In this document: piece by piece, positions 22,745 through 39,584 of the stretch
Numbering within the stretch: the first letter of the stretch is position 1
How the letters are laid out: the number at the start of each line of letters is the position of its first letter
Position numbers and translations under genes: made by a program
Source: a virus
Direction: 5' to 3' (one strand)
DNA: 57,713 bases
Virus record (IMG/VR): IMGVR_UViG_3300027865_000010
Span: 1-57,713 of that record
Notes under the pieces: model-generated
Told to the model about the DNA's origin: nothing
Database searches by the model: none
Seen by the model: only the letters and a program-made list of their open reading frames with translations

Positions 22745-22774
22745 CTTTACAATCACTACAAAAAGGAGAGACAC

Positions 22775-23080
22775 ATGGCAAACTGGATCGCCCTTGAGGG
22801 TGACACACTGACTGATCTCAATGGCTTCGATCTGATCACTATCGACGCGTACGATACGGCAAACAAGGCGCCGCATGATGTAGACAACATGCCGCCTGGC
22901 CTGTCGGTTAATGACCCAGATCTGTGGATCATCCGCGCCTGGTTCCGCAGCGTAGACGATTGCCAAATCATTTTGGCGGCAGGCTCGGAGGCCTACTGCA
23001 AGCGGGTACATGCAGCAATTATCTACTCACTAAACGCACAAACCCTCACTGAGGTGCTCGAAAACGCCGGCAAAGCCTAA
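22775..23080 (+). CDS. Hypothetical protein (101 aa)
   Basis: ATG after AAAAGGAGAGACAC. Begins ANWIALEGDTLTDLNGFD, like an immunity- or scaffold-type small alpha/beta protein, but I cannot name a family. Its neighbour is a decayed gene. Confidence 0.75.
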   Translation: MANWIALEGDTLTDLNGFDLITIDAYDTANKAPHDVDNMPPGLSVNDPDLWIIRAWFRSVDDCQIILAAGSEAYCKRVHAAIIYSLNAQTLTEVLENAGKA

Positions 23081-23094
23081 CCTGCGAGGAAAGC

Positions 23095-23226
23095 ATGCAG
23101 ATCATCAGCGACTTCAAGGACTACTACGACGTAATCGCGTCGGCGGGGCAGGATCTGACGTTGAGGCCAAGGGCTTCGACCCGAAGTGGAGTTTCCGGAA
23201 GCCGCCCACCAAACACAGATGACTAA
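23095..23226 (+). pseudogene. Internally deleted phage gene (MQIISDFKDYYD family)
   Basis: The start MQIISDFKDYYDVIASAGQD matches a phage family I recall as ~200 residues long. After 20 codons the frame turns to nonsense, while another frame gives VEAKGFDPKWSFRKPP and a stop at 23222, the expected C-terminus of that family. The centre has been deleted and the join is out of frame. Confidence 0.6.
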
Positions 23227-23392
23227 CCATATTGGTGCTGCTATTCAGTGGGTGCTGTGCCGCCTGGGTTTTCACGAATGGGTGAAGATCCTTGGATCAC
23301 TGCCACCCCGCCGCCGATGCCTATACTGTGCAGCTGCTCAGATGTGCCATGTTAATGGCTGGGAGAATGCGCCCCTACCCAAAGAGGAGTAA
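23219..23392 (+). CDS. Small protein with CxxC
   Basis: 57 residues from ATG 23219 inside the tail of the decayed gene: LCRLGFHEWVKILGSLPPRRRCLYC resembles small Cys/His zinc proteins of phages. Followed directly by the 23396 gene. Confidence 0.6.
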   Translation: MTNHIGAAIQWVLCRLGFHEWVKILGSLPPRRRCLYCAAAQMCHVNGWENAPLPKEE

Positions 23393-23395
23393 ACC

Positions 23396-23986
23396 ATGGA
23401 CGTAGTGATTGCTGACGGATTCTGGAAGGGCTTCAAGCGTATCTGCCGGCCATGGTATCACCCGGCAAACCTGTGGTACAGCTTCAAGTGCTGGGCATGG
23501 AAGCGCCACACCACGATCAAGCCACGGTACCTGTCGCACACCTGGCATGACCGCTGCGTCATCTTGCCACACATGATGTTCGAGATACTGTCGCAGTTCA
23601 TCGAAGGAGAGTGCGGCCCTGATGGCCACGTAGAGTGGTACGGCGAGAATGCGCACATGATCACTGTGGCCGGCGAAGAGAAGTACGTCCGCGACGAGAT
23701 GCAGGAGCTCTATGACTGGTGGCACAAGAAGTACAACAAGAGGTACGAGGAGCTCGCTGAGTACATCCACGAAGAACGAGAGAAGCTCGACCTGATTAGC
23801 CACTTTCAGGACATACCCGATAGGCCCGGGATATGCCAGTGGAAACCGACGTATGGCATACCCGAAGACGCGCAGCGCGCTAAGGAGCTGTCAGAGTGGT
23901 ACAGCTTCTATGACATAGCCGTGGAGAACTCGCTGAAGCGACACATGCACAGGCTTGTTGCCATTTACCGGTCCATGTGGACATGA
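23396..23986 (+). CDS. Conserved phage hypothetical protein
   Basis: 196 residues rich in Trp, His and Tyr: KPRYLSHTWHDRCVILPHMMFEILSQFIEGE is similar to a phage family I have met as unknown. AAAGAGGAGTAAACC precedes the ATG. The stop overlaps the start of the next gene. Confidence 0.8.
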   Translation: MDVVIADGFWKGFKRICRPWYHPANLWYSFKCWAWKRHTTIKPRYLSHTWHDRCVILPHMMFEILSQFIEGECGPDGHVEWYGENAHMITVAGEEKYVRDEMQELYDWWHKKYNKRYEELAEYIHEEREKLDLISHFQDIPDRPGICQWKPTYGIPEDAQRAKELSEWYSFYDIAVENSLKRHMHRLVAIYRSMWT

Positions 23987-24192
23987 TCTCGCTCAAAGCC
24001 ATTGACCTGAGCAAAGGCCATGACCACGAACATCCAGACATCAAACTCAGCGCGCCGTACCTGATTAAGTGGTGCAATCGCTGGTCTGCGGGCCACTTCA
24101 ACCGTGTGTCGCAGGCATCACCGCCTTTACGTAACCTAAGGAGAGTGAGGATTCGAGATGAGAGAGGAACTGGAGCAGCAACTGTTCACTAA
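23983..24192 (+). CDS. Small hypothetical with RRVRIR tail motif
   Basis: 69 residues from ATG 23983 overlapping the previous stop. The first half looks folded (LIKWCNRWSAGHFNRVSQ); near the end LRRVRIRDER repeats the tail motif found in six other proteins. The bases encoding it also supply the ribosome site of the next gene, so part of this resemblance could be coincidence. Overlaps the 24158 gene by 35 bases. Confidence 0.55.
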   Translation: MISLKAIDLSKGHDHEHPDIKLSAPYLIKWCNRWSAGHFNRVSQASPPLRNLRRVRIRDERGTGAATVH

Positions 24193-24586
24193 GTACCCGG
24201 GGCTCTTCCGCGACCGCCACGGCGATACGCAACAAACGCGTATGGTGGACGGAGTTGGTTGCGGCGACGGGTGGTACGACCTGCTCGACAAGCTGTGCGC
24301 CGACATTACGGCGCAGCCTAACAGCGAGGACGTCGCGATCTTCCAGATTAAGGAGAAGTTCGGCGGCCTGCGCTTCTACGTTGGCGCCGCTAGCTCAGCA
24401 GTCCACGATCTAATATCGGCGGCCGAGGCGCAAGCATACAAGGTTTGCGAGGTCTGCGGCAGTGCTGATGACGTCAAGGCATGCGGGCCGCGATGGCTTA
24501 AATCGCTTTGCCCTGCTTGCCGCAAGGTACGCATTGCCGAGGTCGAGGCCCACCATCAACGACAGCAGCAAGGAACCAGCACTTGA
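24158..24586 (+). CDS. Conserved zinc-binding phage protein
   Basis: 142 residues. GVGCGDGWYDLLDKLC, FQIKEKFGGLRFYVG and CEVCGS...LCPAC form a pattern I know from many phages, function unknown; the C-terminal Cys pairs suggest a zinc ribbon. AAGGAGAGTGAGGATTCGAG precedes ATG. Coupled to the next gene by a TTGA overlap. Confidence 0.8.
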   Translation: MREELEQQLFTKYPGLFRDRHGDTQQTRMVDGVGCGDGWYDLLDKLCADITAQPNSEDVAIFQIKEKFGGLRFYVGAASSAVHDLISAAEAQAYKVCEVCGSADDVKACGPRWLKSLCPACRKVRIAEVEAHHQRQQQGTST

Positions 24587-24867
24587 AATTGCTCTTTTGT
24601 GATGCCTGCGGCGACATTGTCAAGCTGCGAAGCGAGACACGGACATGTAGCTGCAAGAAAAGCGGCGGGCATTACACCAACCACCTTGATGCTGTCTACT
24701 GGGGGCCAGCAATGCCCCTCGGTGTCGACAACATGAGCTTCGCCACAGCGCTGCATGAGCGCCCAACCGAAGGCAAGGGTTTTCGCTTTGCGGCCTTTGT
24801 AATCCCGAAACGATGCCCTACAATGATACAGCTCGAAGGCCCGGACGGTACACCCGTGGCCATCTGA
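24583..24867 (+). CDS. Small conserved protein with zinc ribbon
   Basis: 94 residues from TTG 24583, supported by overlap with the previous stop and AAGGA upstream. LLFCDACGDIVKL...CSCKKSGGHY followed by GPAMPLGVDNMSFATALHERP and FVIPKRCPT is a small conserved family in phages and actinobacteria as I recall. Function unknown. Confidence 0.75.
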   Translation: MKLLFCDACGDIVKLRSETRTCSCKKSGGHYTNHLDAVYWGPAMPLGVDNMSFATALHERPTEGKGFRFAAFVIPKRCPTMIQLEGPDGTPVAI

Positions 24868-24899
24868 GAGCTGACTGCAGCGTAGAACCGGCAGAAGCC

Positions 24900-24973
24900 G
24901 GCTCGGTAGGCAACTGGCAGACCACCTTGGCTTAGAACCAGGGATGCTGTGAGTTCGAATCTCACCTGAGCCA
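24900..24973 (+). tRNA. tRNA-Leu (TAG), short variable arm
   Basis: Acceptor GGCTCGG/CTGAGCC, anticodon stem CTTGG/CCAGG, loop CTTAGAA, T-loop TTCGAAT, A73. The variable region is only GATGCT, whereas bacterial Leu tRNAs normally carry a long arm. Confidence 0.9.
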
Positions 24974-24980
24974 TTCAGCA

Positions 24981-25063
24981 GGGCGATGTTCCCGACGGCA
25001 GACTGTAAATCTGTTGGCATTATGTCGGGCGGTCACCAAGAGGTGCGACTCCTCCATTTCCCA
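24981..25063 (+). tRNA. tRNA-Tyr-like (GTA), D-arm disrupted
   Basis: Anticodon stem GCAGA/TCTGT with loop CTGTAAA and a long variable region fit Tyr. The acceptor pairs six of seven (GGGCGAT/ATTTCCC). The D-arm lacks about nine bases after CCCGACGG; instead CCCGAC (24991-24996) can pair with GTCGGG (25024-25029) in the variable region. T-loop is TGCGACT instead of TTCGACT. Possibly a pseudo-tRNA. Confidence 0.55.
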
Positions 25064-25066
25064 TTG

Positions 25067-25140
25067 GGGCCGATAGCCCAATTGGCAGAGGCGCTAGGTC
25101 GAGGGCCTAGCCAGTGCGGGTTCGACTCCTGTTCGGCCTA
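25067..25140 (+). tRNA. tRNA-Leu (GAG) with C33, short variable arm
   Basis: Acceptor GGGCCGA/TCGGCCT (G1-T72 wobble), anticodon stem CTAGG/CCTAG, loop TCGAGGG: position 33 is C. Variable region CCAGT. T-loop TTCGACT. Confidence 0.82.
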
Positions 25141-25145
25141 CTCGA

Positions 25146-25219
25146 TGCCCAGTAGGCAAGTGGCAGACCACCTGGACTTAAAATCCGGGATGCTGTGGGT
25201 TCGAATCCCACCTGGGCCA
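25146..25219 (+). tRNA. tRNA-Leu (TAA), short variable arm
   Basis: Anticodon stem CTGGA/TCCGG, loop CTTAAAA, variable GATGCT, T-loop TTCGAAT, A73. First acceptor pair T1 against C72 is a mismatch; the rest pair. Confidence 0.9.
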
Positions 25220-25223
25220 CTAC

Positions 25224-25298
25224 GGTCCGGTGCGTCCAATTGGCAGAGCGGCCCGGCTCAAAACCGGGCGGTTGTAGGTTCGAATCCTACCCGGACTA
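25224..25298 (+). tRNA. tRNA-Leu (CAA), short variable arm
   Basis: Acceptor GGTCCGG/CCGGACT, anticodon stem CCCGG/CCGGG, loop CTCAAAA, variable CGGTT, T-loop TTCGAAT, A73. Confidence 0.9.
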
Positions 25299-25415
25299 TT
25301 GGGAATCCAGATCACGGGGCCGCTTGGGCTGGACGATGGCGTTGAGGAGCGGCGGTGTGTACCAGAGAGGGCTGAGAGCGCCACTTACCTACTTGAATGA
25401 CTAAAGGAGATGCTC
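25299..25415. other. Leader of the Clp N-domain gene
   Basis: No gene seen. Ends with a clear ribosome site AAAGGAG at 25403-25409, six bases before ATG 25416. Confidence 0.4.
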
Positions 25416-26129
25416 ATGTACGAGCGGTTCACAGATGATGCGAGGAGGTTGTTCCAGCGGGCCAACAAAGAGGCGCAGCGGTTCAATCACGAATACATCG
25501 GCACCGAGCACATCCTGCTTGGGCTGGTCAAAGGGGACGGCGAGGTCGCAGTCAACATACTGAAGAACCTCGACGTCGATCCGCGGAAAGTCCGGCTCGA
25601 GGTAGAGAAGCTTATGCATAGCGGGCCCGACATGGGCACCGTGGGCAAGCTACCGCAAACGCCCAGGGCTAAAAGGGTCATCGAGTACGCGCAAGGGGAG
25701 GCCCGAGTTACCGAGTTCAACTACGTGAGCACCGAGCAGGTCCTGATCGGCCTGCTGCGCGAGCAGGAAGGCGTCGCGGCCCAGGTGCTGACGGGCCTCG
25801 GGGTAACGCTCGAAGCCGTGCGTGCGCAGGTAGCAGTTGCACCCGATACGGATACGCCCAAGACTTGGGACGCAGAGCGCGGCGCGCTGCTTGCCCATCA
25901 GGCGGCAACAGATGCGCGTATTCGCGCGATGACGGCCCAGTTCAATCGGCTGCTGGAGCTCGTAAAGATCCCGAATCCCGCACGAGACATCGCCAATGAG
26001 GCCAATGAGCTGCTTGCAGCCAAGGATCGCAGGATCGAACAGCTGGAGCGACAGCTGGAGCAGCAGCTGGCGGAGCAGGAGCAAGCTTGGGCCGCGGCGC
26101 ACCAATCTGCCGGGGAGGCCGATGAATGA
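25416..26129 (+). CDS. Stand-alone Clp N-domain (ClpC-like) protein
   Basis: 237 residues. Two Clp repeats: MYERFTDDARRLFQRANKEA...YIGTEHILLGLVKG and RVIEYAQGEA...YVSTEQVLIGLLREQEG, as in ClpC N-domains. No AAA+ ATPase part follows, only a coiled coil (LERQLEQQLAEQEQ). In ClpC this domain binds adaptors, phospho-arginine and substrates, so a solo copy could compete for or redirect host Clp protease partners. ATG 25416 fits the ribosome site better than ATG 25410. Confidence 0.88.
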   Translation: MYERFTDDARRLFQRANKEAQRFNHEYIGTEHILLGLVKGDGEVAVNILKNLDVDPRKVRLEVEKLMHSGPDMGTVGKLPQTPRAKRVIEYAQGEARVTEFNYVSTEQVLIGLLREQEGVAAQVLTGLGVTLEAVRAQVAVAPDTDTPKTWDAERGALLAHQAATDARIRAMTAQFNRLLELVKIPNPARDIANEANELLAAKDRRIEQLERQLEQQLAEQEQAWAAAHQSAGEADE

Positions 26130-26371
26130 CACGCATCTGGAACAAGCGGACGCCGCTATGGATGCGGATCTGGGTCTGGTGGCAGTTCTTGCGGCAGCCC
26201 AAAGACGAGTTCAACTGGCGGTACAATTTGGATCCCGTCGTAATGGCGCACATGTGCAGGTGCGAGTGTGGTCGATACACGGCTGAACTGCTCAGGCGGC
26301 GGCGACGCGCGCACAACGACGATATTGAGCGCCAGGCCAAGGAGATGGACAAGCAATGCTTTTCGCCATAA
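26126..26371 (+). CDS. Small Trp/Arg-rich protein with CxCxC
   Basis: 81 residues, ATGA overlap with the Clp N-domain gene. Trp-rich N-terminus (LWMRIWVWWQF) and central HMCRCECGRY cysteine set, then an Arg-rich helix. Unknown function; translated as part of the 25416-27138 operon. Confidence 0.65.
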   Translation: MTRIWNKRTPLWMRIWVWWQFLRQPKDEFNWRYNLDPVVMAHMCRCECGRYTAELLRRRRRAHNDDIERQAKEMDKQCFSP

Positions 26372-26691
26372 AGCAGGCAATCGCTAACCGTCGTCGCCGC
26401 GAAGCGCTAGTCAAGCAAACCTGCGAGGTTGCACGGCTTACCGCTGCTCTCGAGACCTTGCGTGCCAACTACGAGGCAGACAACCGCAAGCATCAGAGCC
26501 AGATCACAGCGCTACAGGCGTTGTATCGACGGGAACGTGCCGCCCACCTCAGGGACATGTTTGATGACCCTACGCCGGAGACCGCGGCGAACGTCCGGAG
26601 AGAAACAGAGCAACGGCTGAACGTAGCCATGCTCACCCTTCCAGAGCTAAAAAAGGAGAGCGACCGTGGCATTGCAGCAGACGAAAGCTGA
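26356..26691 (+). CDS. Small coiled-coil protein
   Basis: 111 residues; hydrophobic start (MLFAIKQAIANRRR) then a long amphipathic helix. Overlaps both neighbours by short stretches. No family recognised. Confidence 0.65.
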   Translation: MLFAIKQAIANRRRREALVKQTCEVARLTAALETLRANYEADNRKHQSQITALQALYRRERAAHLRDMFDDPTPETAANVRRETEQRLNVAMLTLPELKKESDRGIAADES

Positions 26692-26899
26692 CAAGGAGAA
26701 GGCCAGGAAGGCCTACAAGCACGAGTGGAAGCGCAGAAACAGGGGCCTGGGCCCGGGCGGCAACGCTACGCCTGGTAGCGTCAAGGTGGCGTCCTGCCAG
26801 GCGAGCAGCTTGGACAGGTACATGGCCAACAGAAACCGGAGCTACAAGCACCCCGGGTACGAAGCGTGGCGACTTGGCCACAGTACGGAGATGCGATGA
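26666..26899 (+). CDS. Small basic protein
   Basis: 77 residues from GTG 26666, supported by AAAAAAGGAGAGCGACC. Lys/Arg-rich with Gly/Asn, likely nucleic-acid binding. Overlaps the next gene by four bases. Confidence 0.65.
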   Translation: MALQQTKADKEKARKAYKHEWKRRNRGLGPGGNATPGSVKVASCQASSLDRYMANRNRSYKHPGYEAWRLGHSTEMR

Positions 26900-27138
26900 A
26901 CAGCGTATGGACAGACCGCGCCATTACGGCGCTAGTCGGCTTCGCTGGCGGCGTCATCGGTATCCTGGTGGTACTGGTGTTATCGCTGCTGTGCGGGTTC
27001 GTCGGCTGGGTGAACCCGAATACCGAAGAGAGTTTTATCCAGTGCGTTGCTTACGGAGCGGCTGGATGGGCCGTAGTCCTTTCGGGTGTTATCGGCACAG
27101 CGCTGGCAATCTTCAAGTTGCCCAACGGGCCTGTATGA
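26896..27138 (+). CDS. Small membrane protein, two helices
   Basis: 80 residues with two clear membrane helices (VGFAGGVIGILVVLVLSLLCG and AAGWAVVLSGVIGTALAIF). Last gene of the operon that begins with the Clp N-domain protein; tRNA-Gln follows eight bases later. Confidence 0.7.
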   Translation: MNSVWTDRAITALVGFAGGVIGILVVLVLSLLCGFVGWVNPNTEESFIQCVAYGAAGWAVVLSGVIGTALAIFKLPNGPV

Positions 27139-27145
27139 ACAACGG

Positions 27146-27218
27146 TACCCGGTAGCTCAATTGGCAGAGCGCAGGGTTTTGGTCCCTGAGGTTCCAAGTT
27201 CAAGTCTTGGCCGGGTTG
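27146..27218 (+). tRNA. tRNA-Gln (TTG)
   Basis: Anticodon stem CAGGG/CCCTG, loop TTTTGGT; D-arm GCTCAATTGGCAGAGC; T-loop TTCAAGT. First acceptor pair T1 against T72 is a mismatch. Confidence 0.9.
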
Positions 27219-27219
27219 T

Positions 27220-27291
27220 GGGCTATGAGTGTGATGGATCGCACGGCAGATTACGGATCTGCAAGAAGGGGTTCGACTCCTCTATGGCTCG
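27220..27291 (+). tRNA. tRNA-Arg (ACG)
   Basis: Acceptor GGGCTAT/ATGGCTC, D-arm GTGTGATGGATCGCAC, anticodon stem GCAGA/TCTGC, loop TTACGGA, T-loop TTCGACT. One base separates it from tRNA-Gln. A34 would need inosine editing by the host deaminase. Confidence 0.88.
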
Positions 27292-27311
27292 CTTAATTTC
27301 TTGCTCTTTTC

Positions 27312-27335
27312 TTCGTACCCTAAACATGCTATGCT
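27312..27335 (+). promoter_or_regulatory. Extended -10 promoter candidate
   Basis: AAACATGCTATGCTTGGGG ahead of the HNH gene; TG-C-TATGCT looks like an extended -10. Nearly the same string (AAACATGCTATGGTTAG) lies near 19745. No good -35 seen. Confidence 0.4.
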
Positions 27336-27353
27336 TGGGGTAAGGAGCAAAGT

Positions 27354-27941
27354 ATGCAAGAACAGATACTAGCGCTGCGCGCAAAGGGGTGGTCCTATAA
27401 CCGCATCACCGCAGAGCTCGGATGCTCTAAAGGCACAGTTGCATATCATTGCGGCAAGGGACAGAAAGCCAAAGCGCAGCGCCGCCAGCAGCATTACCGC
27501 CGTAATGACGTCCTGCTCAAGAAGTGCGACAACTTCAAGAACCGACCCGCAAAGCGTCAGCATGTACCCGAAGCCAAAACAACTGACAGCCAACGCCTGC
27601 ATAACAAGCGTAGGGACTTTCAACGTAAACGTGTCAACGGTAATCGCTACGGTAAGCGCGGCAGCTATACGCTCACAGCAGCCACTGTTCGTGAAAAATA
27701 CGGGGAGACGACTACCTGTTATTTGACCGGACGCCCTATCGACCTGTCGCAACCAAAAACGTACCATTTTGACCACATCGTACCGCGAGCGGATGGCGGT
27801 AGCTGTGAGGCAGATAATCTCGGTATCGCTTGCAGCGCAGCAAACAAGGCCAAAGCAGACATGTCTGTCGACGCATTCTTGCAGCTGTGTAAAGAAGTGC
27901 TAGAGCACCACGGCTATGTCGTGGATGAAAAGGTGCGGTAG
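27354..27941 (+). CDS. HNH homing-type endonuclease with N-terminal HTH
   Basis: 195 residues. The N-terminus (ILALRAKGWSYNRITAELGCSKGTVAYH) is a helix-turn-helix for DNA recognition; the C-terminus has CYLTGRPIDL...YHFDHIVPRADGG...NLGIACSAANKAK, the HNH core. A free-standing homing endonuclease whose 3' end overlaps the tRNA-Phe gene by ten bases, suggesting insertion next to or into the tRNA array. Confidence 0.9.
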   Translation: MQEQILALRAKGWSYNRITAELGCSKGTVAYHCGKGQKAKAQRRQQHYRRNDVLLKKCDNFKNRPAKRQHVPEAKTTDSQRLHNKRRDFQRKRVNGNRYGKRGSYTLTAATVREKYGETTTCYLTGRPIDLSQPKTYHFDHIVPRADGGSCEADNLGIACSAANKAKADMSVDAFLQLCKEVLEHHGYVVDEKVR

Positions 27942-28004
27942 CTCAGCAGGTAGAGCACTGGATTGAAAATCCAGGTGTCGGCGGTTCAACTCCACCCCGT
28001 ACCA
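27932..28004 (+). tRNA. tRNA-Phe (GAA)
   Basis: Acceptor GGTGCGG/CCGTACC, anticodon stem CTGGA/TCCAG, loop TTGAAAA, T-loop TTCAACT with one C-A mismatch in the T-stem. Its first ten bases are also the end of the HNH gene. Confidence 0.9.
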
Positions 28005-28013
28005 CTCTAGGAT

Positions 28014-28086
28014 AGGCGAGTAGCTCAGCTGGCAGAGCTTCCGGCTTACATCCGGACGGTCGTGGGTTCAAGTCCCTCCTCGCCTA
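28014..28086 (+). tRNA. tRNA-Val (TAC)
   Basis: Acceptor AGGCGAG/CTCGCCT, anticodon stem TCCGG/CCGGA, loop CTTACAT, T-loop TTCAAGT with one T-T mismatch in the T-stem. Confidence 0.92.
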
Positions 28087-28087
28087 C

Positions 28088-28208
28088 TGGCGTGCGAAGC
28101 AACCATAGGCGTCGTTCATCCGTGACGCCAACAACGGATGCCGAGAACTTCGCACGCCAACAAAAGGCGTGTCGGTCGGGTTCGAGATTACTCACTGATC
28201 GACACGCC
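28088..28208 (+). ncRNA. Structured spacer RNA: pseudoknot plus 12-bp hairpin
   Basis: A 12-bp stem TGGCGTGCGAAG (28088-28099)/CTTCGCACGCCA (28148-28159) encloses an H-type pseudoknot: GGCGTC (28108)/GACGCC (28124) and loop ATCCGT (28118) with ACGGAT (28134). Next, a second 12-bp stem GGCGTGTCGGTC (28166)/GATCGACACGCC (28197) closes a 19-base loop with TTCGA. It fills the gap between tRNA-Val and tRNA-Ser. No known family recognised. Confidence 0.6.
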
Positions 28209-28211
28209 GAC

Positions 28212-28296
28212 GGAACGGTGGCCGAGTCTGGCTAAAGGCCCTTGTCTTGAAAACAAGTTGACGAAAGTCACGTAGGTTCAAATCCTACCCGTTCCG
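28212..28296 (+). tRNA. tRNA-Ser (TGA)
   Basis: Acceptor GGAACGG/CCGTTCC, D-arm GGCCGAGTCTGGCTAAAGGCC, anticodon stem CTTGT/ACAAG, loop CTTGAAA, proper long variable arm (TTGACGAAAGTCAC), T-loop TTCAAAT. Shows that class II arms are kept for Ser in this genome. Confidence 0.93.
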
Positions 28297-28357
28297 CTCG
28301 AATAAAGCTCTTGCGTCGCGTCAAGCTGCAACAGGAACTCAGTGACAAGGAGAAAGA

Positions 28358-29617: not shown

Positions 29618-31498
29618 CTACTGAATGAGCTCGTCGTCCCATTCGGAGTCAGACAGCGGCACAGATGCGCGTAGCTGCTCATCAGAGATCGCAGCAATCT
29701 CGTGCAGCCGTGGCCATTTCTTGGTGCGGTACCAGATACCGACGCAGCCCAGGTTCACAGCCTGTGCAAAGTCGTCGGTGAAGCCTGCCTGCCGGTCAAT
29801 ACGGTAGATCTCGCCAGCAGCCATCGTGGTCACCTTGTCTTCGACGAGCGCCAGGAAGTCACGGATCAGTCCGGGGTCTTCCTGGCTGCTGTAGTCGGAG
29901 TCAAAGAACCGCAGCTGCTTACACTTGATCATTGCGCATGTCAGCAATAACGAGCGGCTCTTGTCCACGCGGTAGTGCGAGCGCGGATGATCTACTGTTG
30001 GAGCCACATGGTAGCACGGCTGCTGCTTGGCCGAGCGTACGTACATACATGGCATTACGCAGCGGCTAGGTACGCCGGACTGAATCAGGAACGTCTCACG
30101 AAGTGAGCCGGCACCCGTGTAGTCATGGCAGATCATGGTCGGGCGGAAGGCGTCCCAGTACTGCTTGATCTCGCGCGCCTCGCGTAGATGGTCATGCGGC
30201 GTGAGTAGCCGCTTGCCCCACAACACGTCGATCTTGCCGTCGTGTTTGACGCCAAGTAGTGCCACTGTCGTGAAGCTCAGCTTCTTCTCGCCACCGCCAC
30301 CCCAGTCTACACCCAGCACGCGCATCTGGTACTTACCACACTTGCCTTTGGCCACTGAGAAGTCGTTGGGGCCTAGGTTCGACACTGCTTCGATTTCCGT
30401 CAGCGTGACGATCTTGGCAGCTGTATCGTACGATTCGCCCAACACTTCGTTATAGAAAACATTCAGCGGCGTGTTACCTTTACCGGCCATCTTGGCCAGC
30501 AGCTCGGCCCACTTGTCTGGCTTCGCGTAGTGCAGCGGCATGATAATCTGCGGCACGTGATAGCCAGCTGACCCCCACACGCGTTTTGGGTAGCGGTGCA
30601 CCCAGCGCCCCATCCGCGGCGATATCGGCTTACCGCACTTGAAGCAGATCGTCGCGGGGTGTTCCTCGCTGATCCCGCTGTGGTACGGTCCGATGATCTT
30701 CTCAAGATGGAACTCCATAGTCGGGATGTTCCATGTTGGGCTGCCATGCGTGGTGCAGTGCATACACGGGATAAACCACTCTGCCTGCGATGACTCTGTC
30801 CACAGCGCCTCGAGCGTATTGTCCAGCGTCTTGGGTGTGCCAGTGAACTGCCGTAGCGCCCACTTGGAGGCCGACATCGTCTCACGGATGATCGGCAGGT
30901 GCTCGCGATTCATATCCTGGACTTCATCAATGGCGACCTTGTCTGCGGAAATACCGCGGACACGATCCGCATTGAGGAAGGCGAAGGAGAAGAGCATCTT
31001 CGAGCGGTTGCGGAAGCTACGATGCAGTACGCTGTTCACCGTGTCGGTTCCGGACCACAGATGCCGTACCGGGCTCTGGTCAATGAACGGTGCCACGAAC
31101 ATTGAGCTGAAGCGGCGCACTTGCTCGAACAGCGGCATCACATACAGCGTAGTAAGATCTGGGATGGATATCGACGTGGCGATGCCGTGCGCGGCTAGTG
31201 ACGTCGACTTGGAGACCTGGCGTCCGGTCTTGTATGTCAGCGATGACGGCATGCGGAACCTGAAAATCTCTTCGAACGGGAAGTGATTTATCAGCGAATA
31301 TGGCTCACCTTTGAGGTTCAGCAGCAGCGGCAATGCCTGCGCCAGCGTATCCATGCGCCCGCTCTCCATCATGGAGGTGAGGCCGGCTATGCGGTCGCCA
31401 GCAGACACGTCATCTGCGTCTTTTGCCGCGAGAAGTGGCCGTATTTGCTGGTGCGCTTGCTCTAGCGCATGCGGTTCGTCGAAGAGCAGCTGGTCCAT
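29618..31498 (-). CDS. terL: Terminase large subunit
   Basis: 626 residues. ATPase part: Walker A-like TGRQVSKST (91-99), Walker B VAIDEVQD (188-195), coupling motif TGTPKT (219-224). Nuclease part: GVDWG (396-400) with catalytic Asp398, HDYTGAGS (Asp459) and a final DDFAQAVN. Two Cys pairs (245/248, 285/288) between the domains suggest a zinc insert. It packages DNA into proheads. It is one of few minus-strand genes here and stands apart from portal or capsid genes; no small subunit is identified nearby. Confidence 0.93.
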   Translation of the reverse strand: MDQLLFDEPHALEQAHQQIRPLLAAKDADDVSAGDRIAGLTSMMESGRMDTLAQALPLLLNLKGEPYSLINHFPFEEIFRFRMPSSLTYKTGRQVSKSTSLAAHGIATSISIPDLTTLYVMPLFEQVRRFSSMFVAPFIDQSPVRHLWSGTDTVNSVLHRSFRNRSKMLFSFAFLNADRVRGISADKVAIDEVQDMNREHLPIIRETMSASKWALRQFTGTPKTLDNTLEALWTESSQAEWFIPCMHCTTHGSPTWNIPTMEFHLEKIIGPYHSGISEEHPATICFKCGKPISPRMGRWVHRYPKRVWGSAGYHVPQIIMPLHYAKPDKWAELLAKMAGKGNTPLNVFYNEVLGESYDTAAKIVTLTEIEAVSNLGPNDFSVAKGKCGKYQMRVLGVDWGGGGEKKLSFTTVALLGVKHDGKIDVLWGKRLLTPHDHLREAREIKQYWDAFRPTMICHDYTGAGSLRETFLIQSGVPSRCVMPCMYVRSAKQQPCYHVAPTVDHPRSHYRVDKSRSLLLTCAMIKCKQLRFFDSDYSSQEDPGLIRDFLALVEDKVTTMAAGEIYRIDRQAGFTDDFAQAVNLGCVGIWYRTKKWPRLHEIAAISDEQLRASVPLSDSEWDDELIQ

Positions 31499-32427: not shown

Positions 32428-32835
32428 ATGGCTGAACGTAAACGATTCAATGAGCAGGTTGCTGAGCGCCTCACAGAGGCTGTCCGCACGCTGCTCGACG
32501 ATGTGCCAGAGCTGGATGGTGTTGCGATCGCATTGACCTATAATCCGTCCGTTGGTGACCCCCTGCCCCAGTGTTTGGTGCTAGGCAATCCCCACGATCC
32601 GGACTTGCTCGGTCGCATGTGCTTGCAGTCCGTGCGTCTGCTACAGACGCACACAGAAGGCATGGCAGCCCACTTCGCATTGGCAGCGCAGACACGTGAT
32701 ACGCTGCAGAAGGAAATAGATGCCCTCAAGCAACAGTCCGCCGAAGCCGCGCCGCAAGGTGCCGGGCAAGCGGAAGGTGCAGCTACCAGGGATTCCGCGT
32801 TTGGCGGACCTCCTGACTCATCTCAAGATCACTGA
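32428..32835 (+). CDS. Hypothetical protein (135 aa)
   Basis: Helical N-terminus (NEQVAERLTEAVRTLLDDVPELD), then a compact alpha/beta-like middle and a low-complexity Gly/Ala tail. Ends inside the RNase H-like gene, which overlaps it by 116 bases. Confidence 0.7.
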   Translation: MAERKRFNEQVAERLTEAVRTLLDDVPELDGVAIALTYNPSVGDPLPQCLVLGNPHDPDLLGRMCLQSVRLLQTHTEGMAAHFALAAQTRDTLQKEIDALKQQSAEAAPQGAGQAEGAATRDSAFGGPPDSSQDH

Positions 32836-33370
32836 CTGGGACGTAATCATCATAGGGGACGGCTCCGGCACGGGCTGGAAGCAAGGAGCAGGCTGGGCCT
32901 CGGTACTCATCGACAGGATGAGCGGCGCACGTAAGCTCTTCTTTGGCGCCATGAACACAGGGACGATCACACTGGGTGAGCTCTTCCCGTATCTGCATGC
33001 GTTGTCCTGGTATACCGGTAAAGACGGACCAGGACGCAATCGACGGCTGGAAGCCCAGCAGGCAGGCCGTCAGATGCAGGCGCATCTCATCACCGATTCA
33101 GAGATCATCGCAACAGCTGGTAACCATCCAGCATCACGACGGTCCCATCGCGAACTCTGGTCCGCATTCAACGAGTACCAGAAGCGCGGTTTCGTACTCA
33201 GCTTTCATTTCGTTGCGCGCGATCGGGTCAATCTGAACGTCCTGGTCGACGAGGTCGCACGTCAGGCACGACTTGACGTTGTAGACACGTACGGGCGTGC
33301 GGTGACGAAGCTTCAACGGCGTTATCCTGGGATACCAGACGATGTCTCAATCTACGATTTCTCGACCTAA
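32720..33370 (+). CDS. RNase H-like protein
   Basis: 216 residues. DVIIIGDGSGTGWKQGAGW, GTITLGELFPYLHALSW and HLITDSEIIATA give the order Asp, Glu, Asp expected of RNase HI-type folds. It could remove RNA primers or act on RNA-DNA hybrids in replication. The first ~35 basic residues (PPKPRRKVPGKRKVQ) overlap the previous gene, so the start may be later. Confidence 0.75.
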   Translation: MPSSNSPPKPRRKVPGKRKVQLPGIPRLADLLTHLKITDWDVIIIGDGSGTGWKQGAGWASVLIDRMSGARKLFFGAMNTGTITLGELFPYLHALSWYTGKDGPGRNRRLEAQQAGRQMQAHLITDSEIIATAGNHPASRRSHRELWSAFNEYQKRGFVLSFHFVARDRVNLNVLVDEVARQARLDVVDTYGRAVTKLQRRYPGIPDDVSIYDFST

Positions 33371-33797
33371 AGCGGCCATCTACCATCCTGAGCTGTACTT
33401 CGATGATACGCCGCTTGTGCTTATCCGCTTCTTTGAGGGGCGCGTGCGCTGCATACGGCGCAACACGCCTACACAGCACTATCGTTTTCACTACGGACAG
33501 GTACGTACCGGCCGCTCCTGGGGCGATACTGCAGAGGGATTTGTACGCCTTAGCGCCGGCAAAACGCCACATCTGATCGTATGCGATTTGCCTTTGGCAG
33601 CTGCGGGTCCGCGAATCATGCTGAACTCGATCGTGAAGGTCGAAAACACGGCCAAAAACAGTACTATCTATCGACATCCATACTTCCATACACACAACAC
33701 GAAAGCGTCCGTATTCGCAGACGAAGGCACCGACACTCGGGAAGCCCGTCGTATTCGAATCCGGCCGACATCTGATAATGGCGACACCGACGAGTGA
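33342..33797 (+). CDS. Hypothetical protein with RRIRIR tail
   Basis: 151 residues, beta-rich (LIRFFEGRVRCIRR...HYGQVRTGRSW). The C-terminus EARRIRIRPTSDNGDTDE carries the recurring tail motif at about residues 136-141. Overlaps both the RNase H-like gene and the GHKL ATPase gene by a few codons, so the three are likely translated together. Confidence 0.72.
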   Translation: MSQSTISRPKAAIYHPELYFDDTPLVLIRFFEGRVRCIRRNTPTQHYRFHYGQVRTGRSWGDTAEGFVRLSAGKTPHLIVCDLPLAAAGPRIMLNSIVKVENTAKNSTIYRHPYFHTHNTKASVFADEGTDTREARRIRIRPTSDNGDTDE

Positions 33798-35610
33798 GCG
33801 GCGTAGTTTTCAGACACACAGCGCGCTGCTGGTTAGCGTAATCAAGCGCCAGGCCGGCAGCCTGTGGAGGGGCATCATCGAGGGCGTTATGAACTCCATC
33901 GATGCCGGTGCCTCACAATGTACAATCTTGCTCGATCAGGATAGCCTGACTATCCGGGACGACGGGAAGGGATTTCGCTCGCAAGAAGACGTCGAGCACT
34001 ACTTCGAGGTCTTTGGGCAGCCGCACGACGATCGGGAGCAGAAGGAGTTTGGGGCCTTTCGTATGGGGCGCGGCCAGCTCTTTGCCTACGGCGTAAACGC
34101 GTGGCGCTCCGGTACCTTCGCGATGGACATCGACATCAACACGGACGGACTGGATTACGTCCTGCGCAGCGGACTGCCGCATCACGATGGCTGCGAGATA
34201 CGCGTAGCGCTCTACAAGCCACTGTCCCACACCGATCTTCGGGGCGCATGCGATAACCTTCGGCAGGCTATCCGCTTTCCACGGGTACCTGTCACGCTAA
34301 ATAACCTGCAGCTGCAGAAGGATCCAACAAAGATCAACTGGGATCTTGAGCTGCCCGAGGGCGACATCCGTTTCAAGGAATACGGAAACCTGGTTGTCTA
34401 TAATCAGGGCATCAAGGTACTGGATTTCACCCGGTTCCACTTGGGCATCGGCGGCGACGTTGTAACGAAGAAGCCGATCCTGGTCAATTTTGCACGCAAT
34501 GACGTGATGGAGAACTGTCCGACGTGGCAGGTGATCAAGAAAGCTATTGCAGCCCATGTCGTTGAGCGGGATACCAATACGCGCGATACACGCGACCGCG
34601 AACAACGTGAGCGCGCTGCACGCGTGTCTGCAAATCGTCGCCGTCGTCTCACCGAGGCAGATCGTGTCCGCCTTGTCAATCAGGCACGCGACAAGGAGCT
34701 GACACTCAGGCAGTTTGAGAACGCGGGCGTCTTCATGTACCACGGACGACGCGTTAACCCAAATGTGCGCGCAGTGTTTAAGGTGGCAAATGGCCGCGTA
34801 ACTCTGCCACCAGCGGGTACCTATGCAGGCACCTATTCGGGCGGCACCGTTGCACGTCTCCAAAGCTATAAGCTAGCCTGCGTGCTCAATCGCGGGATGC
34901 TGGAACGCTTCAACGTTGCGAGCGGGCAAGAGCTGGTAGCAGTAGTCAACCGCATACTGGGCCAGTGGCACTCGAAGCGTCTTAGCTACGTGGCGTGGCG
35001 CGACCTCGAGTCCGTGCTTGACAAGAAGTGCTCACTTGTATCAGACGACCTGCTAATGCCGTTTGAGCGCATTGTGATCAGGGTACTGCGCGAGAAGCGT
35101 AAGTATCTATACGGTACAGGCCGTTTCGGTCCGCCGAATCCGGAGATGCGCGAAATTATGGCAGGGCTGGGCCCTAACGAGTCGTGGACTGACGGAAGGT
35201 CAGTCATAGCGCTTAACAGGGATACCATACGGCGTTTGGGCGCGGGCCCAATCGCGTGGCAGAAATACGCTGCGCTACTCATGCATGAGTACTGCCATCT
35301 CCGCCCGTCAACGCGTCAGCGACATGTGCATTCCGCTGCATTCTATAAGCGGTACCACGACCTGGCATTCAACGATTTTGCGGTAGCACACTTCACGTAT
35401 GAGTGCTCACGCGTAATGGCAGCATACGCAAGCGCAGAGAACACGCTTACTGACGACCAACTAGCAGAAGCACGCGCCGCTGCGGTCGAAGCACGGACTG
35501 CACATACCTTCGTTGATGACCATCCAGCGCTGATGCTGCCGCAAGAAGCGGCACTCATTCCGCGGACAACAGCAATTGTTGCAGAACCCGCAGCAGAGGT
35601 TACCACATGA
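33778..35610 (+). CDS. GHKL ATPase fused to an HExxH metallopeptidase-like region
   Basis: 610 residues. N-terminal Hsp90/MutL-type ATP site: N-box EGVMNSIDAGAS (Glu35, Asn39), DDGKGF (61-66) and a GAFRMGRGQLFAYG lid. The C-terminal part has LLMHEYCHL with HEYCH at 503-507, followed by RHVHSAAFYKRYHDL, resembling zincin peptidases such as SprT-like or gluzincin types. A central Arg/Glu-rich helix joins them. I know no characterised protein of this layout. It could be an ATP-driven protease, a chaperone or an anti-defence factor; none is proven. Confidence 0.8.
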   Translation: MATPTSERRSFQTHSALLVSVIKRQAGSLWRGIIEGVMNSIDAGASQCTILLDQDSLTIRDDGKGFRSQEDVEHYFEVFGQPHDDREQKEFGAFRMGRGQLFAYGVNAWRSGTFAMDIDINTDGLDYVLRSGLPHHDGCEIRVALYKPLSHTDLRGACDNLRQAIRFPRVPVTLNNLQLQKDPTKINWDLELPEGDIRFKEYGNLVVYNQGIKVLDFTRFHLGIGGDVVTKKPILVNFARNDVMENCPTWQVIKKAIAAHVVERDTNTRDTRDREQRERAARVSANRRRRLTEADRVRLVNQARDKELTLRQFENAGVFMYHGRRVNPNVRAVFKVANGRVTLPPAGTYAGTYSGGTVARLQSYKLACVLNRGMLERFNVASGQELVAVVNRILGQWHSKRLSYVAWRDLESVLDKKCSLVSDDLLMPFERIVIRVLREKRKYLYGTGRFGPPNPEMREIMAGLGPNESWTDGRSVIALNRDTIRRLGAGPIAWQKYAALLMHEYCHLRPSTRQRHVHSAAFYKRYHDLAFNDFAVAHFTYECSRVMAAYASAENTLTDDQLAEARAAAVEARTAHTFVDDHPALMLPQEAALIPRTTAIVAEPAAEVTT

Positions 35611-35945
35611 AAACGCACACGGTGGGCGTACAAATGCCTGTAGCGTTGCACGGCCGTGAGATCAAAATCGTCGAGACGACGCTCGAGCTCCCGCGAACGT
35701 ACCAGCCACAGGAAGGACAGTGGTTCTACCATCCGATCTTCAACGGGCTGATGCCGCTGGGGCCGATCTTTTTCGACGGATTCAGGGGGTGGGTGGTAAT
35801 TACAACCGCCGGTGTTGCATACGACTATACGCGTACGCTAACGGAGTGGCTTAATGCGCACCCCGTGTGGTCTGAGACAGAACACCCATTCATCGAGCCA
35901 AGCAGTATAGTGCTGGCTGACGACACTGACAACGAGGAGCCATAG
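35607..35945 (+). CDS. Small hypothetical protein after the GHKL gene
   Basis: 112 residues, ATGA overlap with the GHKL-peptidase gene, so probably made with it. Beta-rich, with Phe/Tyr/Trp in the centre (EGQWFYHPIFNGLMPLGP) and an acidic end. Could be a partner or inhibitor of the upstream protein; no family recognised. Confidence 0.7.
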   Translation: MKTHTVGVQMPVALHGREIKIVETTLELPRTYQPQEGQWFYHPIFNGLMPLGPIFFDGFRGWVVITTAGVAYDYTRTLTEWLNAHPVWSETEHPFIEPSSIVLADDTDNEEP

Positions 35946-35946: not shown

Positions 35947-38055
35947 ATGGCAAAGAAGACACAGGGCGTGCGCGAACACGCGGGGCTTGTCGCCCAGATC
36001 CGGCGCCACGACCGCGCATACTACTGCGAGGGCATCAAAAACGTCACTGATCGGCAGTACGACACGCTCATGGATCGACTCGTTGCGCTTGAGCTGTGGG
36101 ATCCCGCGCTGTGCTCGCCTGACAGCCCCACGCAGCGCGTTGGCGGCAAGCCTCTCAAGGGCCTGCCAAAGGTCACGCACGCAGTACCAATGCTGTCCAT
36201 CGACAACAGCTTCGATCTCGGTGGGCTCAGCGCCTTCCACGCGCGCACGGCTGCTGCCGTAGATGACGACCTGCGGTACGTCCTCGACTACAAGATCGAC
36301 GGCATGGCCGTGGCGCTCATCTACGAGGATGGCATGCTCAAACAAGCTGTTACTCGCGGCGACGGCAAAGTTGGCAGCGACATCACAGCGCATGCCCGCG
36401 CGATGGCCAGCGTACCGCACGAGCTGCTTCCGCCAGATGGCGGCACGGCCCTGGTGCTGGACACACGCGGTCGCATCGAGATTCGGGGCGAGGCGTTCAT
36501 CGGTAACGAGGACTTTGCTGCCGTCCAGAAAGAGCGGCGACTCGCGGGGAAAGAGCCGCATAGCTGCTCGCGCAACGCTACCACCGGTGCGTGTAAGTCT
36601 AAGCGGCCAGGCGACATCGTTGAAAACCGGGTGCAGTTTGTTGCGCACGGCATCGGCGCCATCGCGTTCCTCCCGCCGTCCATACGTGAGTCGTACTGGG
36701 CGCTGATGCGCACGCTGCAGGCCTTTGGCATCCCGACCATTCAAGACGCTACCGGGCCAATGGCCTTCGAGTCGCTCTTCACGGCGATCCAGAAGAAGAC
36801 AGCCGCAATGGCAGCAGAGGACTTCGAGCTGGACTACCCGATCGACGGGCTGGTGCTGAAGGTCGATAGCTTTGCTGCGCGCAAGACGATCGGGCACTCG
36901 TCCAAGCATGTTGGCTGGGCCGTGGCCTACAAGTGGAAGCTCTTTGAGGAAGAGACCAAGGTTACTCGGCTGGAGACGCAGGTCGGTAAGACCGGCATCA
37001 TCACGCCCGTAGTCTACTTCGAGCCGGTTGAGGTTGCTGGTGCCGTACTGCAGAAGGCGACGCTACACAACTTCAACTACGTCGAGGACATGGACATCCG
37101 CATGGGCGACACGATCGTCGTGGAGCGGGCCGGCCAGGTGATTCCCAAGGTGCGCGCAGTCCTGACAGACCGGCGGAAGCCCACGGCGCCGCTCCGGCAG
37201 CCACTGATGATCCCGGGCAAGTGTCCTGTGTGCAGCGCCAAGACGAAGGTCACCGGGCGCAGGGCGGGTCACATCCACGTCCGCTGCACCGCGACAGCCC
37301 TGAAATGCCCAGCACAGCTACAGGGCCTCATCGAGAGCGCGGGCGAGCGCACCCGGCTGGACATCGACGGCCTGGGCGAAAAGCTCGTTTCTGGGCTGAT
37401 CGAGAAGAAGATCGTGAAATCCTTCCCAGACCTGTGGCGCCTGAAAGGCCACAGGAAGGCCATAGAGGGCCTCGAGCGAATGGGGCCTAAACGGACGTCG
37501 AAGCTGCTGGAGGCGCTAGAGGGGGCAAAATCACGCGAATCCTGGCGTTTGCTGGCCTCTCTGGCGATTCCGCACGTCGGCCGGACGCTTTCTGAGCTGT
37601 TTACTACCACCTGCGGGGGGATAGACGGCCTGCGCGAGACGCCCGAGGCCGAATTGCTGGAGTACGAGGGCATCGGCACTGCCGTGGTCACATCGCTGAC
37701 GAAGTGGTTCTCGCTGAAGCGCAACCAGCAGCTGCTGGAGGATCTACGGGAACTTGGACTCAATCTTGGCTCGAACGATGAGATCCCGTCGATACTGCCC
37801 GCCGGACCGCAGCCGCTGGCCGGCAAGAAGATCTGCGCTACTGGCAAGCTGGTCGGCTATTCGCGTGAGAGCATCAAGGCCTGCATCAAGGACGCCGGCG
37901 GTACGGCACAGTCGAGCCTGTCGAAGGGTACGGACTACCTGGTAGCCGGCGAGAAGGCCGGCAGCAAGCTGGCAAAGGCGCAGTCGTTGGGGATCGCCGT
38001 GCTCACAGAGCAGGAGTTCACAGCGCTACTGGGCGAGACGGCAGATGCTAAATGA
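35947..38055 (+). CDS. ligA: NAD-dependent DNA ligase
   Basis: 702 residues, full length for LigA. Adenylation site YKIDGMAV with Lys116, OB-fold region with VERAGQVIPKV, a four-Cys zinc finger (CPVC...RCTATALKCP), helix-hairpin-helix segments and a C-terminal BRCT domain (GKKICATGKLVGYSRESIK). Joins nicks in replication and repair using NAD+. Many phages carry ATP ligases; complete NAD-dependent forms are less usual. Its end overlaps the next start. Confidence 0.96.
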   Translation: MAKKTQGVREHAGLVAQIRRHDRAYYCEGIKNVTDRQYDTLMDRLVALELWDPALCSPDSPTQRVGGKPLKGLPKVTHAVPMLSIDNSFDLGGLSAFHARTAAAVDDDLRYVLDYKIDGMAVALIYEDGMLKQAVTRGDGKVGSDITAHARAMASVPHELLPPDGGTALVLDTRGRIEIRGEAFIGNEDFAAVQKERRLAGKEPHSCSRNATTGACKSKRPGDIVENRVQFVAHGIGAIAFLPPSIRESYWALMRTLQAFGIPTIQDATGPMAFESLFTAIQKKTAAMAAEDFELDYPIDGLVLKVDSFAARKTIGHSSKHVGWAVAYKWKLFEEETKVTRLETQVGKTGIITPVVYFEPVEVAGAVLQKATLHNFNYVEDMDIRMGDTIVVERAGQVIPKVRAVLTDRRKPTAPLRQPLMIPGKCPVCSAKTKVTGRRAGHIHVRCTATALKCPAQLQGLIESAGERTRLDIDGLGEKLVSGLIEKKIVKSFPDLWRLKGHRKAIEGLERMGPKRTSKLLEALEGAKSRESWRLLASLAIPHVGRTLSELFTTTCGGIDGLRETPEAELLEYEGIGTAVVTSLTKWFSLKRNQQLLEDLRELGLNLGSNDEIPSILPAGPQPLAGKKICATGKLVGYSRESIKACIKDAGGTAQSSLSKGTDYLVAGEKAGSKLAKAQSLGIAVLTEQEFTALLGETADAK

Positions 38056-39008: not shown

Positions 39009-39584
39009 CTACTCCTCTTCTGGATCAGCAGCAACATCTGCTACGGGCAAGATAGTCGTACTGCCGATTACTCTGTGCATTGATGTGAGATGGAAGTCAC
39101 TCATGAAGGCGACTTCCACGTGTACGCCAAACGGCTCCAAGTCTGTACGGATCCGCTTGGTAATCGCGTTGTTCACACGCTGGTGCCGACGTACGAGCTC
39201 GTCGACGCTCTTGCCGATGACTGACCGGATGACACCGGCTTGCGCGCGATCTCTGATGGTCGCCGTGAAGTCAAAAGTGTCAACAAGGGCTTTCATGATA
39301 TCCGTGATGGTGTATACTACCGTAACGGAAATCGTGATGCCGACTGGCAGCTCACCACTGAAGGGCAAAGATTGTGGCGCCAGGTTGAGTGTGTCGCGTT
39401 TGACCGGATGGACCATCGGCCTCATAACTGGAGGCCAATACCAGTGAACGCCGGGCCCTAGGCGATAGGCATGGCGGAACCAGAACATGACGCCTTCCTG
39501 CGTTGCATCCACGTGCAGCAAATGCGGGAAGACCTTTGCGAGGGTACGCATCAAGTCCGATATCCAGCCAAGGCCGACGTCCAT
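39009..39584 (-). CDS. SPFH/band 7 (stomatin-like) protein
   Basis: 191 residues. GPGVHWYWPPVMRPMVHPVKRDTLNLAPQSL followed by VVYTITDIMKALVDTFD and a NNAITKRIRTDLEPFGVHV segment is the SPFH core: a beta domain, then a helix carrying regular positions. Most SPFH proteins sit at membranes and organise microdomains or control proteases such as FtsH. There is no clear membrane helix, so host factors or the phage membrane proteins may recruit it. Rare in phages as far as I know. Confidence 0.85.
   Translation of the reverse strand: MDVGLGWISDLMRTLAKVFPHLLHVDATQEGVMFWFRHAYRLGPGVHWYWPPVMRPMVHPVKRDTLNLAPQSLPFSGELPVGITISVTVVYTITDIMKALVDTFDFTATIRDRAQAGVIRSVIGKSVDELVRRHQRVNNAITKRIRTDLEPFGVHVEVAFMSDFHLTSMHRVIGSTTILPVADVAADPEEE

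What the first reader, a model, noticed from the sequence alone, without database searches (positions are those of the whole stretch)
33778..35610. GHKL ATPase fused to an HExxH metallopeptidase-like domain
An Hsp90/MutL-type ATP site and a zincin-like HEYCH motif with a following H-x-x-x-F-Y-x-x-Y-H stretch occur in one 610-residue protein. I know no characterised protein of this layout. It could be a nucleotide-driven protease, a remodeller with a metal site, or an anti-defence factor. It is translated together with two small unknown proteins on either side.
Basis: partly seen in the sequence, partly recalled or inferred. Interest (0 to 1): 0.8.

Follow-up and report, generated by a model that had tools for sequence, protein, structure and literature searches.

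The report
GHKL ATPase fused to zincin domain
A large phage carries a protein that joins an ATP-driven clamp of the MutL/Hsp90 type to a zinc-protease-like domain; relatives with the same layout occur on conjugative plasmids and in other phages, and their function is still unproven.

Summary
Window 33778-35610 encodes 610 aa with an intact GHKL ATP site (N39, D61, GxFRxGRGQ) and HEYCH (503-507) followed by H518-x3-FY-x2-YH. It is not a singleton: relatives occur in 193 plasmid records, 19 viral loci and 71 genome loci. In 60 non-redundant full-length proteins the core ATP-site residues are invariant and the HExxH...H set is intact in 55. Predicted structure: a GHKL+S5 module (MORC2 Z 16.8; Hsp90/TRAP1 Z about 20), a small middle region, then a minimal zincin whose best structural match is the DNA-protein-crosslink protease Wss1 (Z 7.9, 104 residues). 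Five rows lost the metal residues but kept the ATPase, so proteolysis is dispensable in some lineages. Neighbours (NAD ligase in phages; topB, SSB, T4SS, ParB on plasmids) point to DNA handling. My reading: an ATP-gated clamp that cuts protein on DNA, in the manner of Wss1/SprT. No activity is shown. It is a new architecture of known domains; by the tests run it is not an rIIA or ArdC member and passes no Pfam SprT/WLM/YgjP cut-off.

The parts
33778..35610 (+). GHKL-zincin fusion protein, 610 aa (P0001)
33778..34581 (+). residues 1-268: GHKL ATPase plus S5-like transducer
   Evidence: Pfam PF13589; MORC2 ATPase Z 16.8, rmsd 3.9, 250 residues over model 14-268
33880..33903 (+). N-box, E35 to D42 (E35, N39, D42 invariant 60 of 60)
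34051..34077 (+). G2 box / ATP-lid motif GAFRMGRGQ, residues 92-100
34675..35034 (+). residues 300-419: middle alpha/beta region, variable, no sequence family found; Hsp90 middle-domain chains align over it loosely
35035..35403 (+). residues 420-542: minimal zincin domain (helix, three strands, HExxH helix, second helix)
35284..35298 (+). HEYCH, residues 503-507: predicted zinc ligands and general base
35329..35361 (+). HSAAFYKRYHD, residues 518-528; H518 predicted third ligand
33342..33797 (+). 151 aa protein overlapping the start; homologues only in sister phages
35607..35945 (+). 112 aa protein overlapping the stop by 4 bases; homologues only in sister phages
35947..38055 (+). NAD-dependent DNA ligase, neighbour in sister phages and in the metal-site-lacking phages L023, L025, L026
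32720..33370 (+). 216 aa protein, conserved neighbour in sister phages; looks RNase H-like by eye only, no Pfam match
29618..31498 (-). terminase large subunit (phage marker, syntenic in sister phages)

Best explanation
The protein is an ATP-gated, DNA-associated metallopeptidase of mobile elements. Its N-terminal GHKL-S5 module (shown by motifs and predicted fold) would bind ATP and dimerise into a clamp in the way MutL and MORC do (inferred from those families). The C-terminal minimal zincin with three-histidine site H503/H507/H518 and general base E504 (shown as motif and predicted fold; zinc and catalysis inferred) would then cut protein held in or next to the clamp, as Wss1 and SPRTN do on DNA-bound or DNA-crosslinked protein. 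The element would profit by clearing proteins, perhaps covalent topoisomerase, relaxase or other DNA-protein adducts, from its replicating or incoming DNA. Lineages that lost the metal site would keep the clamp as a remodeller.
For: Architecture and conservation: in the 60-row alignment E35, N39, D42, D61, G63, R95, G97, G99, Q100, R240 are 60 of 60; H503 55, E504 56, H507 57, H518 55 of 60. Mean pLDDT 85.5 for the whole model, 87.2 for the C-half. N-part: MORC2 ATPase, Z 16.6-16.8, 250-252 residues; PMS2/MutL are the PDB sequence matches, best E 2.8e-7. C-part: rows 1-20 of the structure list are all zinc metallohydrolases (by name or by my knowledge), Wss1 first (Z 7.9, rmsd 3.1, 104 residues), then selecase and abylysin. 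Wss1 has HExxH plus a third His (115, 119, 125) and degrades the protein part of DNA-protein crosslinks (PMC5557861, passages). Profile match to YgjP over the HExxH..H..F stretch E 2.3e-5 (probability 76), to SprT 0.002 (probability 14), against 0.08-0.51 in five control pairings. Context: NAD ligase near the gene in two phage groups; topB in 9 of 74 loci, 8 of them within 2 kb, on either side; SSB, ParB, Y-family polymerase, cytosine methyltransferase, DinG, UvrD-like helicase, VirB9-11 and coupling-protein genes near plasmid copies.
Against: No activity, zinc or ATP turnover was measured. Foldseek alone gives no C-half match at E <= 0.001, and the tool warns that Z under 8 may reflect only a common arrangement. 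Pfam SprT-like reaches only E 0.039 (2 of 60 rows) and WLM 0.032 (1 of 60). The profile match to YgjP is confined to the metal motif, 21 columns. Metal geometry in the model was not inspected, as coordinates are not readable here. Five of 60 rows lack the site, and two fetched loci hold only a GHKL part (L022 295 aa, L039 277 aa), so the ATPase can act without it. The topB link has no background rate: mobile elements often carry topB among their core genes.
Confidence: 0.45

Rival explanations
1. A GHKL remodeller or DNA clamp in which the zincin domain is a structural or protein-binding module (pseudo-peptidase) and catalysis is secondary.
For: ATP-site residues are stricter than metal-site residues: core residues 60 of 60 against 55 of 60; 4 changes of metal-site state on the tree of the N-part; GHKL-only loci L022 and L039.
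Against: H503, E504, H507, H518, F522 and H527 stay in 55-57 of 60 rows that share only about 22-44% identity with the window protein, which a purely structural role would not demand.
Confidence: 0.25
2. An early effector that digests a host protein, for instance a restriction, recombination or transcription factor, so as to protect incoming DNA (counter-defence), like the MPTase domains of polyvalent proteins.
For: Shared by phages and conjugative plasmids, as polyvalent-protein peptidases are (PMC5512222, passages); LPD1, ArdR and LPD7 proteins near some plasmid copies; SprT-like and ArdC-like peptidases of jumbo phages are read as host-directed by others (PMC7824862, passages).
Against: In the window phage it sits with DNA ligase, not in a recognised counter-defence cluster; no specific PADLOC match.
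Confidence: 0.2
3. A metal-dependent hydrolase with another substrate, such as RNA (YbeY has a related fold).
For: YbeY-type chains 1oz9 (Z 5.4) and 7y7o (Z 5.1) are among the structural matches.
Against: The glutamate of HExxH, the general base of peptidases, is kept in 56 of 60 rows, and peptidases rank higher.
Confidence: 0.05

Closest known systems
Wss1 / WLM and SPRTN / SprT DNA-protein-crosslink proteases (minigluzincins)
   Same: Minimal zincin fold, HExxH with a third histidine; Wss1 is the top structural match; DNA-related setting; Wss1 works with an ATPase, Cdc48 (PMC4559962, abstract and passages).
   Different: Here the ATPase is GHKL-type and in the same chain; the third His follows HExxH after 7-12 residues in the intact rows (10 in the window protein) against 5 in Wss1; no Pfam-level membership.
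MORC / paraMORC and MutL GHKL ATPases
   Same: GHKL plus S5 module, conserved ATP motifs; MORC2 Z 16.8, MutL/PMS2 sequence matches.
   Different: C-half is a zincin, with no MutL C-terminal or nuclease family found; far below the MutL curated cut-off (18.1 against 180 bits).
Phage T4 rIIA and rIIA-like proteins
   Same: N-terminal GHKL with a different C-terminal half; rIIA-like models match in the viral library; described as GHKL plus variable C-terminus (PMC7824862, passages).
   Different: No significant BLAST match to T4 rIIA and a profile match only over GHKL columns, probability 18; no rIIB-named PHROG in the two small neighbours.
ArdC / polyvalent-protein MPTases
   Same: Zincin peptidases shared by phages and conjugative elements (PMC5512222, passages).
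   Different: Those use a glutamate as third ligand by that paper; here the conserved residue is histidine (H518, 55 of 60); no ArdC-N or MPTase Pfam hit.

Membership tests
GHKL ATPase superfamily (PF13589) | Profile score over curated cut-off | tested here: met
   30.1 bits against 25; all 7 relatives scanned (6 plasmid, 1 Acinetobacter record) also over 25
GHKL ATPase superfamily (PF13589) | N, G1 and G2 box residues | tested here: met
GHKL ATPase superfamily (PF13589) | ATP binding and hydrolysis | not testable with these tools
   needs protein
MORC / paraMORC | GHKL plus S5 fold | tested here: met
   MORC2 Z 16.8, rmsd 3.9, 250 residues
MORC / paraMORC | Neighbouring restriction-modification genes | tested here: inconclusive
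   A cytosine methyltransferase near one annotated plasmid copy; none among the window neighbours scanned
Minigluzincins (Wss1/SprT/YgjP) | HExxH plus third His | tested here: met
   55 of 60 rows
Minigluzincins (Wss1/SprT/YgjP) | Helix, three strands, HExxH helix, second helix | tested here: met
   DSSP of model mb83b88af763f; Wss1 alignment over P0001 420-542
Minigluzincins (Wss1/SprT/YgjP) | Pfam SprT-like, WLM or YgjP score over cut-off | tested here: not met
   so it is not filed as a member of any of these Pfam families
Minigluzincins (Wss1/SprT/YgjP) | Zinc binding and proteolysis | not testable with these tools
   needs protein
T4 rIIA | Sequence relation beyond the GHKL domain | tested here: not met
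T4 rIIA | rIIB partner gene adjacent | tested here: inconclusive
   The two adjacent proteins match no rIIB-named PHROG; the whole phage is not available
ArdC / polyvalent MPTase | HExxH with glutamate third ligand, ArdC-N domain | tested here: not met
   H518 conserved as His; no such Pfam domain

The most novel reading that the evidence does not exclude
Phages and conjugative plasmids share a self-contained, ATP-gated DNA-protein-crosslink protease: a GHKL clamp closes on DNA and its built-in Wss1-like zincin digests covalently trapped proteins (topoisomerase, relaxase, methyltransferase), doing in one chain what eukaryotes do with Wss1 or SPRTN plus Cdc48/p97.
Probability: 0.2. Interest if true: 0.85.

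Novelty: new variant of a known kind. Interest (0 to 1): 0.6.

Why it matters
A protein family annotated mostly as 'ATP-binding protein' turns out to pair a MutL/MORC-type clamp with a Wss1-like zincin on mobile DNA in Pseudomonadota, Paenibacillus, Deinococcus and several uncultured lineages. If it works as proposed, mobile elements bring their own means of removing protein roadblocks during replication or entry, and the phage and plasmid forms give simple systems for asking how ATP binding gates a DNA-linked protease. The natural losses of the metal site offer a ready comparison of ATPase-only and peptidase forms.

Tried and rejected
rIIA orthology: rejected on sequence, though rIIA-like models are common in the viral structure list, plausibly through the shared GHKL fold. 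PADLOC: only weak GHKL-driven matches. phrog_6203 (unknown function) matches 53 of 60 rows; for the window protein the match covers only residues 28-82, so it says no more than GHKL. SprT-like and WLM never pass Pfam cut-offs in the C-half. PDB sequence searches with the C-half gave only chance-level matches. The single-sequence scan of viral contigs found no relative; the alignment scan did. Chains missing from the structure list (SPRTN, for example) are not excluded. I did not compute a background rate for topB, inspect model coordinates, or test dN/dS. The RNase H reading of 32720-33370 is by eye and has no profile support. A first profile comparison held wrongly oriented SprT and YgjP rows; it was redone with corrected frames, and only one search is used. 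Literature searches. The only paper holding 'GHKL' with 'zincin', or 'GHKL ATPase' with 'metallopeptidase' and 'conjugative', was PMC7824862, and the passages seen do not describe this fusion; the library is open-licence PMC only.

Rows dropped: the 90 loci L009-L098 gave 71 distinct full-length proteins; 59 of these remained at under 90% identity and with P0001 make the 60. Incomplete or disrupted copies (for example L014, L015, L022, L039, L055, L078, L080, L082-L084, L090, L093, L095-L098) and identical copies were left out. Plasmid-collection copies L003-L008 and Acinetobacter P0004 are outside the 60; all 7 keep the metal motif. The neighbour count took 74 loci: 59 non-redundant loci, 14 annotated records and the window; 72 of them gave a GHKL ORF.

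Full report
Setting. The window is a 57,713-base virus record, G000. It carries a terminase large subunit (29618-31498, -; phrog_675 E 2.4e-59, Pfam GpA_ATPase), 16 tRNA genes and an NAD-dependent DNA ligase (35947-38055). Sister contigs sharing the neighbourhood reach 153 and 226 kb (L016, L010), so the window is probably a fragment of a large tailed phage (inference).

Observation. The 610-residue ORF at 33778-35610 is real. HATPase_c_3 is over its cut-off. HEYCH is at 503-507 and is followed by HSAAFYKRYHD from 518. The motif HE..H followed by H...[FW] arises in 0.042% of shuffles of this protein.

Family. tblastn finds 193 plasmid records, 10 of them with one place covering at least 80% of the query; annotated rows mostly read 'ATP-binding protein'. 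Among phage records there are 2 matches, both Acinetobacter phage MD-2021a, whose 704-aa protein keeps the motif. A scan with an 8-row alignment gives 19 viral loci, and an 18-row alignment gives 71 loci in species genomes: Pseudomonas, Burkholderia, Erwinia, Paenibacillus, Acidithiobacillus, and MAGs labelled Saccharibacteria, Planctomycetota, Armatimonadetes, Nanosalina and others. MAG labels may be wrong for phage or plasmid contigs.

Conservation. In 60 non-redundant rows the ATP-site residues E35, N39, D42, D61, G63, R95, G97, G99, Q100 and R240 are invariant. H503 is kept in 55, E504 in 56, H507 in 57, H518 in 55, F522 in 56 and H527 in 56; all four metal-site residues together in 55 of 60, and in 11 of the 14 viral rows. 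The five exceptions (L023, L026, L024, L086, L091) keep the listed GHKL residues, apart from G65S in L091; three of the five (L023, L026, L086) keep the WTDG strand. L025, left out of the 60 as a near-copy, also lacks the motif. On a tree of the N-terminal part the metal-site state changes 4 times; L091, L024 and L086 are on long end branches and L023/L026 on a long stem, where placement is unsure. Two fetched loci, L022 (a 202-kb viral contig) and L039, show only a GHKL part; no other ORF in those loci matched the family profile at E 1e-3.

Structure. The full model has mean pLDDT 85.5 and pTM 0.58, so domain placement is less sure than the domains themselves. The N-part aligns with MORC2 (Z 16.8, rmsd 3.9, 250 residues) and with TRAP1/Hsp90 chains (Z up to 20.1, rmsd 6.4 and above). 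The separately predicted C-half (residues 326-575, pLDDT 87.2) has, in P0001 numbering, helix 428-440, strands 459-464, 469-471 and 476-480, helix 481-487, HExxH helix 491-505 and helix 520-530. Foldseek gives nothing at E <= 0.001 for it; the best zincin is selecase at 0.17. The second-look aligner puts yeast Wss1 first (Z 7.9, rmsd 3.1, 104 residues), then selecase, abylysin, EryP, jannalysin, YbeY, BepA and aminopeptidases. The first 20 rows are all zinc metallohydrolases (the identity of the unnamed entry 1oz9 as a YbeY is recalled), and the first other protein is row 21. Z under 8 alone would be weak, as the tool says; the agreement among rows, the conserved motif, and the profile match to YgjP over the same stretch (E 2.3e-5, 21 columns; SprT 0.002; five control pairings 0.08-0.51) make a zincin fold the sound reading. 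That the ligands form a site in the model was not checked.

Neighbours. In sister phages the genes terminase, 32068, 32410, 32720, 33342, this gene, 35607 and ligase recur in the same order where the contig reaches, with one or two extra small ORFs before the 35607 homologue in L009 and L013. The 33342 and 35607 proteins have homologues only in these sister phages at tblastn E <= 1e-4. DNA ligase also lies downstream in L023, L025 and L026, whose copies have lost the metal site. On plasmids the gene sits inside or beside transfer and maintenance genes: virB9-virB11 and coupling protein, topB, ParA/ParB, a cytosine methyltransferase, SSB and a Y-family polymerase, ArdR, DinG, a UvrD-like helicase. 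Other annotated copies have mostly hypothetical neighbours. A neighbour clustering of 74 loci gives topB as the most widespread cluster after the family itself, in 9 loci, 8 of them within 2 kb and on either side; L005 and L052 are near-copies, and there is no background estimate.

Interpretation. Shown: a conserved two-domain family, intact ATP motifs, a conserved three-histidine HExxH site in most members, a zincin-type predicted fold, and presence on phages and plasmids. Inferred: ATP-driven clamp closure as in MutL and MORC, zinc, proteolysis, DNA association, and a role in clearing DNA-bound protein. The Wss1 comparison rests on fold rank, the three-His site (115, 119, 125 in Wss1; PMC5557861, passages) and the DNA-handling neighbourhoods. 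The natural loss of the site in some lineages argues that the ATPase has a function of its own.

Relation to the literature. PMC7824862 (passages) describes rIIA orthologues as GHKL plus a variable C-terminus and mentions SprT-like and ArdC-like peptidases in jumbo phages as separate proteins. PMC5512222 (passages) describes zincin MPTases of polyvalent proteins with a glutamate third ligand. PMC2292703 and PMC8011034 (term searches and passages) cover MORC/paraMORC and hold no 'peptidase'. None of the ten searches of the open PMC library turned up a description of a GHKL-zincin fusion in what I read; absence from that library is not proof of novelty.

Verdict. A real, conserved and, as far as searched, undescribed combination of two known domain types; its function is open, with DNA-linked, ATP-gated proteolysis the most likely reading at about 0.45.

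Noticed in passing
window 47409-48962: 517-aa protein with PfkB kinase and cytidylyltransferase-like domains (HldE-like heptose kinase/adenylyltransferase), with a CTP_transf_3 protein at 13364-14209: a possible phage sugar-nucleotide pathway.
   Followed up: no
window 39009-39584 (-): SPFH/Band 7 domain protein (Pfam E 9.2e-13), conserved in sister phages L009, L010, L012, L013, L016.
   Followed up: no
window 17509-28297: 16 tRNA genes including four leucine tRNAs close together (24900-25298) and one with a four-base anticodon call (27202-27292, overlapping tRNA-Gln).
   Followed up: no
L005, L006, L007 C-termini: Plasmid members of about 805 aa carry a long extra C-terminal tail ending in a conserved stretch ERNAAAAGF..V..YL.WR, absent from the phage protein.
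   Followed up: no
L041, L044, L046 (Pseudomonas cerasi plasmid p58T3): Three copies of the family on one plasmid record.
   Followed up: no
L024 and L043: ORFs of the same length and score appear in a viral contig and in an Alphaproteobacteria MAG contig of similar length, so the MAG contig is probably the phage.
   Followed up: no
window 52151-54292 and 717-2417: SbcC-like ATPase and an AAA ATPase matching phrog_8638 (unknown function): further candidate DNA-metabolism genes of this phage.
   Followed up: no
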